From Mycobacterium sp. UM_CSW (lineage in GTDB: Bacteria > Actinomycetota > Actinomycetes > Mycobacteriales > Mycobacteriaceae), in the NCBI RefSeq assembly GCF_000455205.1, contig NZ_AUWQ01000023.1:1-64000 (forward strand): a stretch of 64,000 bases of DNA, in the 5' to 3' direction. Below, in pieces: positions 57,617 through 63,003 of this stretch. Each line of letters begins with the position of its first letter. The first letter of the stretch is position 1. The notes beneath the pieces were generated by a model, which saw nothing but the letters and a program-made list of their open reading frames with translations, made no database searches and was not told the DNA's origin. The translations under genes were made by a program, and so were the position numbers.

Positions 57617-57795
57617 CGATTGCTCCCTTTATCCCTGCAAATGGGGCTCCGCCACTTGCTAACGAGGCTAATTGATGGGGCCTCCCCGCAAAAAACCGCG
57701 CGCACCGGTGGTCGGGGCGTCCCGGCCGAGTGCGGCAAGGAAACGCCAGGCTTCTGAAAGGACTTATCCTCCTCCGCCCCGTAACCTTGACAGCC

Positions 57796-58557
57796 GTGAC
57801 GGCTTCCGCCACCTGCAAAATCACCCGAAGACTCCGCGACGCCGGCTGCGTCGTGGGCGCGAGGGCACGTCGGCTGTCCGGGCCCCGGACGGTCGCGACA
57901 GTGGTCGGTATCACAGTCCTGATCGTGGTGGCCACCTGGCTTCCCCTGCCGACGCCGGTGCAGATGCGGGATTGGGCCGAGTCGGTCGGCCCCTGGTTCC
58001 CGTTGGCGTTCCTCGCCGCGCACATCGTGGTCACCGTGGTGCCGGTGCCCCGCACCGCGTTCACCCTGGCCGCCGGGCTGCTGTTCGGCCCCCCGCTGGG
58101 GATCGCCATCGCGGTGACCGCCAGCACCGCGAGCGCGGTGATCGCGATGCTGCTGGTGCGCGCGGCCGGGTGGCAGCTCAACCGCCTGGTTCGCCACCGC
58201 GCGATCGACACGGTCGACGAGCGCCTGCGCGAACGCGGCTGGCTCGCGGTCTTCTCGCTGAGGTTGATCCCCGCCGTACCGTTTTCGGCGATCAACTACG
58301 CCGCCGGCGCCTCGGCGGTGCGGGCTGTGCCGTACACGTTGGCAACGCTGGCGGGTTTGCTGCCTGGCACCGCGGCCGTGGTGATCCTCGGTGACGCCCT
58401 CGCCAGCCACCCCAGCCCGCTGCTGCTTTTGGTGTCGCTGTGCACCGGCGCCTTGGGGCTGACCGGGCTGATCGTCGAGATCCGCCAGTTCCGGCGCCAC
58501 CACCGCCGTAAGGCGCACACCGCCACGCCCTCCCCAGAACCGGCCGTCGTCCGCTGA
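57796..58557 (+). CDS. VTT/TVP38 (DedA-like) membrane protein, Rv1491-like
   Basis: This 253-residue polytopic protein of the VTT domain family has PVPRTAFTLAAGLLFGPPLGI and FSLRLIPAVPFSAINYAAGASAVR, the two re-entrant-loop motifs of the family. Related proteins scramble or flip lipids such as undecaprenyl phosphate. GTG 57796 is chosen for length. It is divergent from mutA. Confidence 0.88.
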   Translation: MTASATCKITRRLRDAGCVVGARARRLSGPRTVATVVGITVLIVVATWLPLPTPVQMRDWAESVGPWFPLAFLAAHIVVTVVPVPRTAFTLAAGLLFGPPLGIAIAVTASTASAVIAMLLVRAAGWQLNRLVRHRAIDTVDERLRERGWLAVFSLRLIPAVPFSAINYAAGASAVRAVPYTLATLAGLLPGTAAVVILGDALASHPSPLLLLVSLCTGALGLTGLIVEIRQFRRHHRRKAHTATPSPEPAVVR

Positions 58558-58571
58558 CGTCGCCCGCGGAT

Positions 58572-58631
58572 TTCTGAACCAAACCTGAAGATATGGGCAC
58601 TGAGGGCCGCTCTTCAGGTTGATTTCAGATC
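58572..58631. promoter_or_regulatory. Divergent pair of operator-like repeats before the proline-rich genes
   Basis: CTTCAGGTTGATTTCAG (58612-58628) on the plus strand and CTTCAGGTTTGGTTCAG (58574-58590) on the minus strand share the pattern CTTCAGGTTnnnTTCAG. Each is a half-site repeated with an 11-bp period, typical of OmpR/PhoB-type regulators. The plus copy lies just upstream of a TANNNT element (TAACGT, 58639-58644), so it overlaps the -35 region of the promoter for the gene at 58677. A third copy lies before the response regulator gene. Confidence 0.7.
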
Positions 58632-58676
58632 GCCTTTCTAACGTCGCCGGCATCACCCGAGCAACGAGGAGGCACA

Positions 58677-59024
58677 GTGACCAGCGAGGAATCGACACAC
58701 ACCACGCAGCCCGCTACCCCACCTTCGGTCCTGCAGCGGCACCCCGTGGGCGTCGCGGTCGGCAGCGGGTTGGCCGGGCTCGCCGTCGGCGCGTTCGGTG
58801 CCGCCACCCTGATCGGCCTCTGGGCCCCCGCGCCCCCACCGCCGGGCTGGGGTTTTCCGCCGCCGCCGGGCGCCCTGGGTCCCCCGCCGCCACCGCCGTT
58901 CGCCTGGCACCCGCCGCCGCCCTGGGCCGCCCCGCCGCCGCCGGGCCAGCCGCCGCAGCCCGGCCTCCCGGCCCCTCCCGGCGGTCCGGCGTCCCCGCCG
59001 TCGTCACCACCGCCGGCCCGATAA
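58677..59024 (+). CDS. Proline-rich small membrane protein
   Basis: This 115-residue protein has a single hydrophobic segment near residues 22-45 (PVGVAVGSGLAGLAVGAFGAATLIGLW). Its C-terminal 65 residues are made mostly of Pro, Gly, Ala and Trp (PPPPPPFAWHPPPPW and similar). The start is GTG with GAGGAGG upstream. A proline-rich exported protein follows 22 bp later. Operator-like repeats at the promoter tie it to the nearby two-component system. I know no function for it. Confidence 0.8.
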   Translation: MTSEESTHTTQPATPPSVLQRHPVGVAVGSGLAGLAVGAFGAATLIGLWAPAPPPPGWGFPPPPGALGPPPPPPFAWHPPPPWAAPPPPGQPPQPGLPAPPGGPASPPSSPPPAR

Positions 59025-59046
59025 CGCAGCAAAGGAGAAACCGACA

Positions 59047-59298
59047 ATGAAGATCAAGCAAGCGATCGCCGGTTCGTTGCTCGCGGGCGCCCTCGGGGTG
59101 GCCGCGGCCGGCTTCGGCGCCGCGGTGGCCAGCGCCGATCCGCCGCCGCCACCACCGGGACCGGGGCAACCCGGACCGCCGCCGGGTCCGGGGGGTCCTG
59201 GCGGACCGTTCGGGGCTCCCCCGCCCGGGCCCGGTGCACCGGGCGGACCCTTTGGGCAGCATCCCGGCGGACCACCTCCACCGCCGCCGGGATTCTGA
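59047..59298 (+). CDS. Secreted proline/glycine-rich small protein
   Basis: This 83-residue protein has an N-terminal signal peptide (KIKQAIAGSLLAGALGVAAAG, then a probable cleavage after VASADP). The mature part is about 50 residues of Pro and Gly with repeats such as GGPFGAPPPGPGAPGGPFG. The start is ATG 59047, with AAAGGAG upstream. It is co-transcribed with the proline-rich membrane protein gene and ends before a strong terminator. Function unknown. Confidence 0.82.
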   Translation: MKIKQAIAGSLLAGALGVAAAGFGAAVASADPPPPPPGPGQPGPPPGPGGPGGPFGAPPPGPGAPGGPFGQHPGGPPPPPPGF

Positions 59299-59321
59299 CG
59301 CCGGCCGTCCAGCGCACCGGC

Positions 59322-59365
59322 GAGCGGTGGTCGCCCCAACAATCCGGTTGGGGCGACCACCGCTC
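59322..59365. terminator. Strong bidirectional terminator hairpin
   Basis: A perfect 19-bp stem (GAGCGGTGGTCGCCCCAAC at 59322-59340 with 59347-59365) has a 6-nt loop. It lies between the convergent proline-rich gene and the histidine kinase gene and can serve both. Confidence 0.9.
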
Positions 59366-59367
59366 CC

Positions 59368-60834
59368 TCAATTCACGCCCGCGTCGAGCGGCAGGCTGAG
59401 CCGGAATTGAGCCCCGCCCTCGCGCGGCAGGCACGTCAGCTCCCCGCCATGGGCGCGCGCCAGCGCCCTGGCGATCGGCAGGCCCAGCCCGGCACCGCCG
59501 TGGTCGCGGGCGCGCCCGGCATCCAGGCGCACCAGCCGCTCGAAGATGCGGTCGCGTTCGTCGTCGGGAATGCCGGGGCCGGTGTCGGTGACGGTGACCT
59601 CGGCCGCGTGGTCGCGGGAGCGCAGGTCGACGTGGATGGCGCCGGCCTCGGGGGTGTAGCGCCGGGCGTTGTCGAGCAGGTTGGACAGGATCTGCGCCAG
59701 CCGGTTCGGGTCCGCTTTCATTCGCAGTTCGTCCGGGCCGGTCCGGATGACCGTGACGCCAGGCGCCAGCAAGGCCGCCCGGTCGGCTTCGGCGTCGACG
59801 ACAGCGGCGAGGTCGACATCTTGCAGATCCAGCGGCAGTCCCGCGTCGATTCGGCTCAGGTCGAGCATGTCGGCCACCAGGCGCCCGGCGCGGCGGGCGT
59901 CGGACAGCAGCAGGCTGGCACGGCGGTGCTGGGCACGGGCCGCGTCGTCGCGCTGCTGGCCGGCGTTGCTGACGAGTTGTTCGGCGGCCGCCTGGATGCC
60001 GGCGATCGGCGTCCGCAGCTCGTGCGCCGCGTCGACGAGAAATCGCCGGGTGGCCGCCTCGGCGCGCCGGGCATCCTCGGCCGAGTGCTGGGCCCGCCGC
60101 TCGGAGGCTTCCAGCGCCTCCAGCATTCCGTCGAAAGCTGCTGCGGCACGGCCTAATTCGGTATCGGCGCGCTTCGGGCGCAATCGTCGGCCGCGATCAC
60201 CCGTCGCGATGTTGGTGGCCAGCGCGGTGAGCCGGTCCAGTGGCCGCAGCGCGACCCGGCTGACCGCGATCAGCAGCAGCGCCGCCACCACCAGCGTCGC
60301 CACACCCGCGCCGATCATCAGCTGGCGCAGCTCCCGGGTCACCTGCGTGGTCTGCGTCGTGTCCGCCACCAGGATCACGCGACCGCCGTCGGGCAACGGA
60401 TGCACCAGCTCGGTGGCGGTCGCGTCCGGCGGCGGGGGCGGCACGCCCGGCGGCGGCCCGAACGGCGGGTAACCGGGCGGCGGCGGTGGCGGTGGCCCAA
60501 GCGGGGGAACGAACGCGCCGGCGGTGGTCTGCGGGCTGATCGCCGGGTCGCCGTAGGCCGTGCCGTCCGCGGTGACCACGAGCGCGCGCACGGTGCCGCC
60601 GCCCAGTTGGGCGGCGATCTGCTGCGGCGGCGTGCGCGCGATCGCCAGGGCGTCCGCGCGGGAGGTGGCCGCGAGAAGCCGGTCGTTGAGGTTTCGACGG
60701 GCCTGGGCGCGCACGGTGACGTCGATGATCACGCCCAGGATCAGCAACACGACGGCGAGCACGCCGATAGCGACGACGACGACCCGGCGCTGCAGCGACG
60801 GCGTCGGGGTCGCCGGATCGGCTGGTGCCGTCAT
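59368..60834 (-). CDS. Sensor histidine kinase with proline-rich extracytoplasmic segment
   Basis: This 488-residue membrane kinase has TM1 at about 17-41, a sensor domain at 42-171, TM2 at 172-194, then HAMP, HisKA with phospho-acceptor His271 (DAAHELRTPIAGI), and HATPase (N box QILSNLLDNARRYTPE; G boxes DTGPGIPDDERDRIFERL and GAGLGLPIARAL). The sensor domain carries a run of prolines at 110-137 (PPLGPPPPPPPGYPPFGPPPG), very like the neighbouring small proteins. The ATG at 60834 overlaps the response regulator stop (ATGA). The signal is unknown. Confidence 0.92.
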   Translation of the reverse strand: MTAPADPATPTPSLQRRVVVVAIGVLAVVLLILGVIIDVTVRAQARRNLNDRLLAATSRADALAIARTPPQQIAAQLGGGTVRALVVTADGTAYGDPAISPQTTAGAFVPPLGPPPPPPPGYPPFGPPPGVPPPPPDATATELVHPLPDGGRVILVADTTQTTQVTRELRQLMIGAGVATLVVAALLLIAVSRVALRPLDRLTALATNIATGDRGRRLRPKRADTELGRAAAAFDGMLEALEASERRAQHSAEDARRAEAATRRFLVDAAHELRTPIAGIQAAAEQLVSNAGQQRDDAARAQHRRASLLLSDARRAGRLVADMLDLSRIDAGLPLDLQDVDLAAVVDAEADRAALLAPGVTVIRTGPDELRMKADPNRLAQILSNLLDNARRYTPEAGAIHVDLRSRDHAAEVTVTDTGPGIPDDERDRIFERLVRLDAGRARDHGGAGLGLPIARALARAHGGELTCLPREGGAQFRLSLPLDAGVN

Positions 60835-61540
60835 GATCGGTGGGCCTGCATGCGGTAGCCGATGCCGCGGACCGTGTGCACGATTCGCGGGCCGTGTGCC
60901 TCGAGCTTGCGGCGCAGCCCGCTGATGTGCACCTGCACCAGGTTGGGGTCGTAGGCGTCGTAGCCCCACACCGCGTTCAGGATCTGCGGGGCGCTCACGA
61001 TTCGGCTGCGCTGTTCGACCAGGAATCGCAGCAACCGCAGCTCGGTGGCGGTCAGGTCCAGCGGATGTCCCGCGCGCACGGCGACCCCCGCGTCGACGTC
61101 GAGCATCAGGTCGCCCACCTGGAGCGCCCGCGGCAGCCGTCCCCGCCGGCGCAACACCGCACCGACCCGCGACACGAGTTCGGCCAGCTCGAACGGCTTG
61201 ACACGTAGTCGTCGGCCCCGCCGTCGAGGCCGCGCAGCCGGTCGTCGAGGCCGTCACGCGCGGTGATCAGCACGATGCCCGCGTCGCCCCAATCGCGGAT
61301 TACCTCGATGAGCTCGAATCCGTCGCGGCCCGGCAGCATCACGTCGAGCACCACCAAGTCCGGTCGCAGGCCGTCGAGCGCGGCCTCCAGACCGTCGCCG
61401 TCGGGGCAGGCGTCGGCGTGGTATCCGGCGTCGGTCAGCGCCTCGCTGACCATCTCCCGGATCGTCTCGGAATCCTCGACCACCAGCACCCGCGGTGTGC
61501 CGGCCGCCGGGTGCCTGCCCGCGCGCGGGTTACTCACCAT
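60831..61540 (-). pseudogene. OmpR-family response regulator with a single-base frameshift
   Basis: The receiver domain (Asp66 in DLVVLDVMLPG; Thr93 in LITARD) and the winged-helix DNA-binding domain (LTATELRLLRFLVEQRS, VQVHISGLRRKLE) are both intact but in different frames. After Val113 (ADDYV; codon at 61202-61204) one base is missing, so the frame leaves KPFELAELVSRVG, including the conserved lysine, and hits stop at 61106. Adding one base would restore a 236-residue regulator ending at 60831, overlapping the kinase start. Either the gene is broken or the base is a sequencing error; the site is not a homopolymer. Confidence 0.85.
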
Positions 61541-61589
61541 GCCTCATTGTTAGCGCCACTTTGCTGGACCTGCCTGTCCAGCCCGCTAT

Positions 61590-61609
61590 CTTCAGGTTCG
61601 CTTCAAGTT
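61590..61609. promoter_or_regulatory. Third operator-like repeat, upstream of the response regulator
   Basis: CTTCAGGTTCGCTTCAAGTT contains TTCAGGTT-cgc-TTCAAGTT, the same 11-bp-spaced repeat found at 58574-58590 and 58612-58628. It lies about 50 bp upstream of the regulator start, which fits autoregulation. Confidence 0.7.
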
Positions 61610-61641: not shown

Positions 61642-63003
61642 TCATGCCGGCTCCGCCCGTGCCGCCGCTGCCGCGCTGAGGTCGACGACACCGGAACCAA
61701 GCAGCGGCTTGCCCGCCACCTCCGGGGCGAAGATCAACGTGACGGCGCCGACCAGCCCGGCGAACATCAGCATGTACGCGGGCATCATCGGATTGCCGGT
61801 TCCGGCCACCAGCGTCTCGGCGATCAATGGCGTGGTGCCGCCGAAGGCCGAAACCGCGATGTTGAACCCGATCGACACCGCGCCGTAGCGCACGTGGGTG
61901 GGAAACAGCGCGGGCAGGATCGCCGGCTCGAGGCTACTCAGGAAGAGCATGGGCAAGGCGACGAGCGCCACGCCGGCGAACTTCGTCGGATACGCCCCGC
62001 CGAACCGCATCAACGCGAACGCCGGCAGCGAGACCCCGACCAGCAGCCCGCAGCCCGTCCACATCAGCGGTTTGACCCCGATGCGGTCGGACAGCATCGC
62101 GACCAGGAGCACCCCGACCGTCAGGACCGCCAGCACCACCAGGACCATCACCAGGGCCGCGGTGTCCCCCACGCCCGCGGTCTTCTTGAGATATGTCGGC
62201 ACGTACCCGCTGACCATGTAGCTGGTGTCGGTGACCGCGAGCTCCACCCCGAGGCAGATCAGTAACCCTTTCCACTGCCGCACGACGGTCAGCACGAACT
62301 GGGTGCGGACGGAGACCGGCACCGCGACCTTATGCACCTTCTCGTAACCGGGCGACTCCTCGATCCGCGAACGCAGGTAGATCGCGACCAGGCCGAGCGG
62401 CGCGGCCAGCAGAAACGGGATGCGCCAGCCCCAGCTCAGCATCTCGGCGCTCGACAGCGCCGTTTGCAGGCCCGTCACCAGCACGGCGCCCACGACGAAC
62501 CCGCCGAGCGTGCCCACCGGGAGAAATCCGGCCATCATCCCGCGTTTGTGGTCGGGGGCGTGTTCGGCGATGAACGTCATGGCGCCCGCGTATTCGCCGC
62601 CGGAGGAAAGTCCCTGACCGATGCGAATGACCGTGAGCAGGATGGGCGCCCAGATCCCGATGGTGTGGTAGCCGGGCAGTGCGCCGGTCAAGGCGCCGCA
62701 GACCGCCATCAGCGAGATCGTCATCACCAGCACGGGCTTGCGCCCGATCCGGTCGCCGAGCGGGCCGAAGATGAACCCACCGAGGGGCCGGACGACGAAT
62801 CCCGCCGTCATCGTGCCGAACGTGGCGATCAGGTTGCCCGCGTCGGAATTGCTCCCGGGATAGAACGTCTGCGCAAGGAGCGTGGCGACGAGGCTGAACA
62901 GGGTGAAGTCGTACGCCTCCATGAAGTTGCCGATGGCCGTGCCCTGGATGGACCGATGCGCCGCTCGGCGATCGGCGGCCCGGACCTCAGCATTTCCACT
63001 CAT
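61642..63003 (-). CDS. MHS-family MFS transporter
   Basis: This 453-residue transporter has 12 membrane segments and belongs to the metabolite:H+ symporter branch (ProP/KgtP/ShiA). Seen: GNFMEAYDFTLFSLVATLLA in TM1, the MFS loop GPLGDRIGRKPVLV, and IRIGQGLSSGGEYAGAMTFIAEHAP. The substrate is probably a small organic acid, betaine or similar compound, but it cannot be read from the sequence. Confidence 0.9.
   Translation of the reverse strand: MSGNAEVRAADRRAAHRSIQGTAIGNFMEAYDFTLFSLVATLLAQTFYPGSNSDAGNLIATFGTMTAGFVVRPLGGFIFGPLGDRIGRKPVLVMTISLMAVCGALTGALPGYHTIGIWAPILLTVIRIGQGLSSGGEYAGAMTFIAEHAPDHKRGMMAGFLPVGTLGGFVVGAVLVTGLQTALSSAEMLSWGWRIPFLLAAPLGLVAIYLRSRIEESPGYEKVHKVAVPVSVRTQFVLTVVRQWKGLLICLGVELAVTDTSYMVSGYVPTYLKKTAGVGDTAALVMVLVVLAVLTVGVLLVAMLSDRIGVKPLMWTGCGLLVGVSLPAFALMRFGGAYPTKFAGVALVALPMLFLSSLEPAILPALFPTHVRYGAVSIGFNIAVSAFGGTTPLIAETLVAGTGNPMMPAYMLMFAGLVGAVTLIFAPEVAGKPLLGSGVVDLSAAAAARAEPA

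What the first reader, a model, noticed from the sequence alone, without database searches (positions are those of the whole stretch)
58572..61609. Proline-rich proteins and a two-component system sharing one operator pattern
Two small proline-rich proteins (one membrane, one exported), a kinase whose extracytoplasmic domain has its own poly-proline run (residues 110-137), and an OmpR-type regulator are packed together. The matching composition of the sensor loop and the small proteins suggests that the small proteins contact or tune the sensor. I know no described system of this kind. The composition and layout are seen directly; the contact is inference.
Basis: partly seen in the sequence, partly recalled or inferred. 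Interest (0 to 1): 0.72.

Follow-up and report, generated by a model that had tools for sequence, protein, structure and literature searches.

The report
Proline-rich sensor with private outputs
A mycobacterial sensor with a long proline stretch on its outer side appears wired, through one precisely placed DNA switch, to genes for small proline-rich envelope proteins, and related sensors without the stretch are wired to a different kind of surface protein, which suggests that sensor and product are matched.

Summary
At 58574-61606 lie two small proline-rich genes (membrane, exported), a kinase with a poly-proline insert in its outer domain, and an OmpR-type regulator that is split over two frames here (1 of 87 loci). 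The shared operator, TTCAR-N6-TTCAR, is strongly confirmed: 3 of the window's 4 matches are here (0.08 expected), and over 106 loci a -10 box starts exactly 26 bp after the site in 72 of 141 sites, against 3 hits at 43 other offsets. It is nearly private: in 32 genomes 33 of 43 strict matches lie at this system or at its small genes; a reversed control gives 16. Insert and small genes go together (58 of 59 against 2 of 23). Kinases without the insert have PE/PPE genes beside them in 15 of 25 loci, 12 with the operator. So sensor loop and output class change together, though on few branches. It is not TcrXY, which also activates small proline-rich proteins (PMC10883919). Contact with the sensor is inference, with a precedent in EnvZ/MzrA (PMC6023141). 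A new variant of a known kind.

The parts
57730..58557 (+). VTT-domain membrane protein gene, neighbour in one clade of relatives
   Evidence: Pfam PF09335 E 1e-23; synteny
58574..58589 (-). operator site, divergent partner of the next one (spacing 23 bp by the script's measure)
58613..58628 (+). operator site TTCAGGTTGATTTCAG in front of the small proline-rich genes
58639..58644 (+). -10 box TAACGT, 26 bp after the operator start as in the relatives
58677..59024 (+). class A small proline-rich membrane protein, 115 aa, GTG start, GAGGAGG upstream
59047..59298 (+). class C small proline-rich exported protein, 83 aa, ends PPPPPPGF; probably co-transcribed with class A (22 bp gap, no operator of its own)
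59368..60834 (-). sensor histidine kinase, 488 aa
60418..60522 (-). poly-proline insert of the kinase outer domain (residues 105-139; proline run 110-137)
60834..61175 (-). DNA-binding half of the OmpR-type regulator (Trans_reg_C)
   Evidence: Pfam PF00486 E 8.6e-24; best solved chain PrrA
61223..61540 (-). receiver half of the regulator, in another frame than the DNA-binding half in this assembly
   Evidence: Pfam PF00072 E 1.3e-17; frame comparison
61591..61606 (+). operator site upstream of the regulator, pointing away from it, without -10 box at the conserved place
61642..63003 (-). MFS metabolite/H+ symporter gene, neighbour only

Best explanation
A nearly self-contained two-component circuit. 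The kinase senses an unknown envelope signal. The regulator binds a direct repeat (TTCAR-N6-TTCAR, 11-bp period) whose start lies 26 bp before the -10 box, and activates genes for small proline-rich proteins: membrane classes A and D and exported class C. Relatives of the kinase without the proline insert have the same operator in front of PE or PPE genes instead, so the class of surface protein made changes together with the sensor's outer loop. Few or no other targets are recognisable. Sites also lie before the regulator gene, but often facing away, so autoregulation is possible, not established. Shown by sequence: the operator, its fixed promoter geometry, its near restriction to this system, and the association of the kinase insert with the output class. 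Inferred: that the regulator is what binds the site; that the small proteins serve the envelope; and that they touch the kinase insert through their proline/aromatic tails and tune it, as MzrA does with EnvZ. I put the regulatory wiring at about 0.9 and the contact at about 0.4 (0.35 before the PE/PPE result).
For: Operator per class: A 22 of 29; D 32 of 38 (4 of the 6 misses are class B genes that my rule missed); C 10 of 22 on their own plus 7 behind a gene with an operator (3 none, 2 without flank); B 0 of 27 on their own (4 lie behind a gene with one, 1 lacks flank). -10 box exactly 26 bp on: 72 of 141 sites, 3 at 43 other offsets; at the site nearest the gene D 32 of 32, C 10 of 10, A 16 of 22. 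PE/PPE genes beside kinases without insert: 12 with the operator, 8 of them with the -10 box at 26; Pfam confirms PPE in L217 and L093 and PE in L089. Operator upstream of the regulator, either orientation, in 52 of 85 loci (shuffles mean 0.08, max 1). Strict pattern in 32 genomes: 43 hits, 33 at this system or its small genes, reversed-pattern control 16. Small genes that lie apart keep the site: G060 A+C pair about 800 kb away, G046 C gene about 14 kb away, G233 C gene on another contig. No site in 6 of 6 class-B loci of genomes without the system, nor in 5 of 5 class-B loci where the kinase is elsewhere, nor in the regulator promoter of 10 of 10 TcrXY-like loci. Insert and small genes: 58 of 59 against 2 of 23. 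Strong class C hits (70 bits or more) in 21 genomes, all 21 with the kinase.
Against: Tree-aware test: 2 independent pairs on starred branches (4 on all), the second trait following in 1, sign test p 1; the PE/PPE cases fall in two clades. L039 and L040 have the small genes but a kinase without the run; L070 the reverse by HMM, though a diverged proline-rich membrane protein is visible there. Sites facing the regulator occur in only 29 of 85 loci, and 0 of these 29 have the -10 box at 26. 7 of 29 class A genes lack the strict site. Weaker class C matches (under 56 bits) occur in 57 more genomes, many without the kinase; I take them for generic exported proline-rich starts. Composition matching holds for class A only; D r 0.13 p 0.17, B r -0.007 p 0.54, C r -0.32 p 0.98. 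In the window the regulator is split, so the circuit may be dead here unless this is an assembly error. The outer-domain model is of low confidence (mean pLDDT 64.7). There are no expression or binding data.
Confidence: 0.65

Rival explanations
1. The small proline-rich proteins are plain protective outputs, like TarA/TarB under TcrXY, and never touch the kinase; the insert is a stiff spacer or serves another ligand.
For: TcrXY activates small proline-rich proteins that limit redox stress at acid pH (PMC10883919, abstract, passages, sections 6 and 9 read), and the 11 TcrY-like kinases read have no comparable insert. Composition matching fails for three of four classes. L039/L040 keep the small genes without the run.
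Against: Small genes adjoin 58 of 59 kinases with the insert and 2 of 23 without it, and PE/PPE genes stand in beside 15 of 25 kinases without it: a plain output need not change with the sensor loop. EnvZ/MzrA shows that such contacts exist (PMC6023141).
Confidence: 0.42
2. The pairing is common descent plus G+C-rich low complexity: proline runs drift in length and mean little, and the genes merely stayed neighbours.
For: Few independent changes on the kinase tree; inserts vary widely in length and sequence.
Against: Operator and -10 spacing are rigid over diverged loci and over three gene families; outer neighbours change while class A stays; A and C genes that lie apart keep the operator.
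Confidence: 0.07
3. Poly-proline is a translational device: stalling relieved by EF-P sets sensor and small-protein levels, so the circuit reads translation capacity.
For: Runs of up to 11 prolines in the outer loop; polyproline motifs cause stalling that needs EF-P (PMC6023141, abstract).
Against: In EnvZ stalling had little effect on kinase level and the motifs served protein contacts (PMC6023141, abstract). Not tested here.
Confidence: 0.05
4. Proline tracts on opposite strands act as inverted repeats; inversion swaps the kinase input for a small-protein membrane anchor, a switchable sensor.
For: Non-standard relative strands in 4 of 37 testable loci (L041, L046, L102, L124); in L041, L046 and L124 a small-protein start and the kinase share one open frame. 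In L195 the class A frame and the kinase match meet at their proline tracts.
Against: All four come from draft assemblies, and many contigs end in the tract; misassembly explains this equally well. L102 has only a kinase fragment. In the window the arms between small genes and insert are 21-33 nt and 70-90% complementary.
Confidence: 0.05

Closest known systems
TcrXY with TarA/TarB (Rv3706c, Rv3705A), Mycobacterium tuberculosis
   Same: Two-component system that directly activates two small proline-rich proteins (PMC10883919, sections 6 and 9)
   Different: Not orthologous: kinases beside lpqH-family genes (taken as TcrY from recalled gene order) are 34-38% identical in the core, their regulators 38-45%. 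No such operator in the regulator promoter of 10 of 10 of these loci (one chance-like reverse match behind the regulator in L231), nor in 6 of 6 asd regions fetched, 4 of which show a TarA-like gene by eye. The TarA-like proteins are not matched by the four models here. The paper reports no TcrX motif in the tarA/tarB promoters; here the motif is exact. Autoregulation is shown for TcrXY and only possible here.
EnvZ-MzrA (Escherichia coli)
   Same: Periplasmic polyproline motif of a kinase, a modulator protein that binds it, and co-occurrence of the two (PMC6023141, abstract and section 21)
   Different: The motif there is VVPPA, not a 30-residue run; contact is shown there and not here
CpxA-CpxP type feedback (recalled, no call)
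   Same: Small envelope protein made by the system that may feed back on the sensor
   Different: No sequence comparison was made; CpxP is not proline-rich (recalled)
PrrA/PhoP-type OmpR-family regulators
   Same: Best solved chains for the DNA-binding half
   Different: No membership in those systems follows; partner kinase and operator were not compared

Membership tests
OmpR-type two-component system | Kinase with HAMP, HisKA, HATPase_c | tested here: met
OmpR-type two-component system | Regulator with receiver and winged-helix DNA-binding domain in one protein | tested here: inconclusive
   Both halves match; one open frame in 86 of 87 loci, split in the window
TcrXY | Orthology of kinase and regulator | tested here: not met
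   34-38% kinase core identity and 38-45% regulator identity, against 56-100% kinase core identity within this lineage; TcrY identity rests on recalled gene order
TcrXY | Activates small proline-rich proteins | tested here: inconclusive
   Operator and -10 geometry predict it; no expression data
TcrXY | Autoregulation | tested here: inconclusive
   Site facing the regulator in 29 of 85 loci, facing only away in 23, none in 33; no TANNNT at 26 in any of the 29
TcrXY | Response to acid pH | not testable with these tools
   needs experiment
EnvZ-MzrA-like modulation | Polyproline in outer domain co-occurs with small membrane or exported protein | tested here: met
   58 of 59 against 2 of 23, without correction for descent
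EnvZ-MzrA-like modulation | Physical contact through the polyproline motif | not testable with these tools
   only single-chain prediction was available; composition match weak
EnvZ-MzrA | Homology of the small protein to MzrA | not tested
   no MzrA sequence was compared

The most novel reading that the evidence does not exclude
An output-matched receptor: the system makes essentially one thing, a surface protein, and its sensor loop is built to recognise that very class. Where the output is proline-rich the sensor grows a hypervariable proline insert that pairs with the tails; where the output is PE/PPE the insert is absent. The level of the system's own product in the envelope would then set the gain of the sensor, and sensor and product co-evolve like a lock and its own keys.
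Probability: 0.25. Interest if true: 0.83.

Novelty: new variant of a known kind. Interest (0 to 1): 0.67.

Why it matters
TcrXY and its two small proline-rich targets are known, but that paper found no DNA motif in their promoters and no mechanism. This separate lineage gives a clean case: an exact operator, a rigid promoter geometry and few or no other targets, so the purpose of small proline-rich proteins in mycobacteria can be asked with few confounders. The same promoter design in front of PE/PPE genes in sister lineages offers a rare handle on how such surface genes are controlled, and the parallel change of sensor loop and output makes a direct test of sensor-product matching possible.

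Tried and rejected
Orthology with TcrXY: rejected. A kinase beside dapC-like genes (L093), first taken for TcrY: rejected from its neighbours (gene identities recalled). A first reading gave class B an operator; (0 of 27 in loci with the system; in the control loci my signature rule found the gene in 3 of 6 and 4 of 5, 0 with operator) and one search showed that it belongs to the gene behind. Firm autoregulation: dropped on rechecking. 'No targets but small proline-rich genes': corrected on rechecking, since PE/PPE genes carry the operator in sister clades. Inverted-repeat switching: kept only as a weak rival. Tree-corrected significance of the co-occurrence: tried, not reached. A fold search on the outer-domain model met a busy machine and was not repeated. 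Papers: the searches showed no description of this lineage in the rows listed; the claim of novelty rests on these, in an open-access library. The MprA box, recalled as a similar direct repeat, was searched for by name (0 occurrences in the rows listed) and not compared.
Full report
What is there. The window is mycobacterial by its relatives: named loci with the kinase come from M. interjectum, M. colombiense, M. paraense, M. terramassiliense and unnamed species. Reading left to right: a VTT-domain gene, a divergent pair of operator sites, a class A proline-rich membrane protein, a class C proline-rich exported protein, then on the other strand a histidine kinase and the two halves of an OmpR-type regulator, another operator site and an MFS transporter. 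The regulator halves lie in different frames; of 87 loci in which both halves could be placed, 86 have them in one open frame and only the window does not. A very near relative, strain E796 (kinase 97-100% identical over its first 206 residues), is among the 86. Whether this is a sequencing error or a real lesion cannot be told here.

The kinase family. In 248 genomes of the genus 88, by my hand count of the table, have a match at E 1e-100 or better; six candidates per genome were scored. I fetched 99 loci, one of them the window itself, and 36 from the named collection (many of them distant kinases). Eight of the named loci repeat genomes already fetched; the distant ones (under 44% identity) and two with only a kinase start fell away, leaving 106 loci, the window included. 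In most an insert lies at one fixed place of the outer loop, between '..YGDPAISP..' and '..DATAT..HPLP'; loops with it hold 20 to 43 prolines. A model of residues 11-210 puts it in a disordered loop between two strand pairs, at low confidence (mean pLDDT 64.7).

Small proteins. Four classes were modelled from sequences: A (RHPVGVAVG-type membrane), B (RRHSTG-type with VRVELPPPPYP), D (RRHSTG-type without that end) and C (exported; 15 or more of 22 end in PGF). Of 98 kinases with at least 80% of the core (8 of 106 dropped), 82 could be scored for both traits: 58 have insert and small genes, 21 have neither, 3 disagree (L039, L040, L070); 16 were unscored, mostly for contig ends. Fisher's p is 2.9e-16, but the rows are related: on the tree the insert changes 4 times and the small genes 3 times, and the independent-pairs test has 2 to 4 pairs and is not significant. 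I treat the co-occurrence as real but evolutionarily thin.

What kinases without the insert have instead. Rechecking the sites that face away from the regulator showed that in sister clades they stand before PE or PPE genes. Of 25 kinases scored as without insert, 15 have a PE or PPE gene on the divergent side and 12 of these have the operator within 260 bp of it, 8 with the -10 box at 26; of 60 with the insert none has an operator-bearing PE/PPE gene (2 of 60 have a PE gene elsewhere in the locus, without operator); of 21 unscored one has a PE gene. Pfam gives PPE for L217 and L093 and PE for L089. The 10 others without insert are the two that keep small genes (L039, L040), three of a clade with other neighbours (L094-L096) and the five outgroup kinases L103-L107. 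The 15 lie in two clades of the tree, so this too rests on few changes.

Without the kinase. The membrane classes match in 70 of 248 genomes. Ten of these have no full kinase match and I fetched their loci: four (G029, G061, G097, G238) hold the regulator and a broken or cut kinase; six (G076, G105, G110, G164, G242, G244) hold a class B gene in the mutA-VTT region and no kinase or regulator of this lineage nearby. An eleventh, G188, has a kinase fragment. Class C matches in 78 of 248 genomes at E 1e-6; the 21 with 70 bits or more all have the kinase, while the next best match has 55.7 bits and many of the weaker ones lie in genomes without it.

The operator. TTCAR-N6-TTCAR lies upstream of the regulator in 52 of 85 loci against a shuffle mean of 0.08: facing the regulator only in 8, facing away only in 23, both in 21; none of the 29 sites facing the regulator has TANNNT at 26. 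Over 106 loci 141 sites were found; a TANNNT -10 box starts 26 bp after the site in 72, against 3 at the 43 other offsets tried. Taking the site nearest each small gene: D 32 of 32, C 10 of 10, A 16 of 22, the other six A genes having CAACGT at that place. Divergent site pairs have their 5' ends 22-24 bp apart in 25 of 29 pairs, the window's pair at 58574/58613 included. This is the layout of an activator that stands in for the -35 region (general knowledge of OmpR-family activators; inference here).

Privacy. The stricter CTTCAGNYNNNYTTCAR finds 5 places in the window's genome, 2 of them here. Over 32 chosen genomes 43 places were found: 33 at the system or at a small proline-rich gene and 10 elsewhere, while the reversed pattern gives 16. 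The attribution of the 33 is mine, from positions. Seven of the 10 could be read; none has TANNNT at 26 and none has a small gene by the models, though one (G237, 3403667) is close to the consensus and may be real. Two of the 33 are not beside the kinase: the A+C pair of G060, about 800 kb away, and the C gene of G046, about 14 kb away; a C gene on another contig in G233 has the relaxed site. Of the seven genomes in these calls without a kinase of this lineage, six have no strict site (G105, G002, G183, G175, G065, G072) and G075 has one, without the -10 box.

Comparison with the known. Kinases beside lpqH-family genes, TcrY by gene order that I recall, are 34-38% identical to the window kinase core; their regulators are 38-45% identical and their promoters lack the operator in 10 of 10 loci. 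So this is not TcrXY, although TcrXY too directly activates two small proline-rich proteins, without a recognised motif in their promoters (PMC10883919: abstract, passages, sections 6 and 9 read). TarA-like proteins seen by eye near asd in four of six genomes are membrane proteins with proline-, glycine- and histidine-rich tails; they are not matched by the models here. EnvZ offers the precedent for contact: its periplasmic polyproline motif is needed for MzrA binding and co-occurs with MzrA (PMC6023141: abstract, section 21 read).

Contact. The one test that I could make of 'matching composition' was a partial Mantel test with kinase distance held constant: class A r 0.25, p 0.003, n 21; D r 0.13, p 0.17, n 23; B r -0.007, p 0.54, n 23; C r -0.32, p 0.98, n 14. 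With four classes tested, one positive is weak support. The parallel change of insert and output class adds to it; I moved contact from about 0.35 to about 0.4 for that.

Judgement. The wiring is about as well supported as sequence alone allows; what the circuit senses and what the small proteins do are open. It is a new variant of a known kind (a two-component system with small proline-rich targets), of interest because it is compact, exact and testable, and because sensor loop and output class change together.

Noticed in passing
60834-61540: The regulator is split over two frames in this assembly only (1 of 87 loci); raw reads should decide whether it is an error.
   Followed up: partly
L041, L046, L124: Draft loci in which a segment between the kinase proline tract and a small-gene proline tract appears inverted, with hybrid frames; inverted-repeat recombination or misassembly.
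   Followed up: partly
L195:4633-5187: In a 2.2-Mb contig (G097) a class A frame and the kinase match meet at their proline tracts, as if the segment between had been lost.
   Followed up: no
L192:6500-8500: G029 keeps regulator and small genes but only remnants of the kinase, and no operator was found in its 11 kb.
   Followed up: partly
L188:1487-2147: Strain E796 has a PIN-domain (VapC-like, by eye) gene between regulator and MFS gene, where several relatives have a class B gene; the window has only about 100 bp there.
   Followed up: no
L073: Kinase frame broken inside the proline tract in a one-contig genome (G045): slippage or sequencing error.
   Followed up: no
59275-59298 and class C relatives: Most exported proteins end in PGF, a conserved aromatic C-terminus that may be a recognition end.
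   Followed up: no
L229-L238, regulator promoters: TcrXY-like promoters share a different conserved stretch by eye (around TTCACAG..GCGCATAG..CATAG) that could help to find the missing TcrX motif.
   Followed up: no
G237:C1:3403667: A consensus-like strict operator far from the system with a TATCAA box at the expected place; its target gene was not identified.
   Followed up: partly
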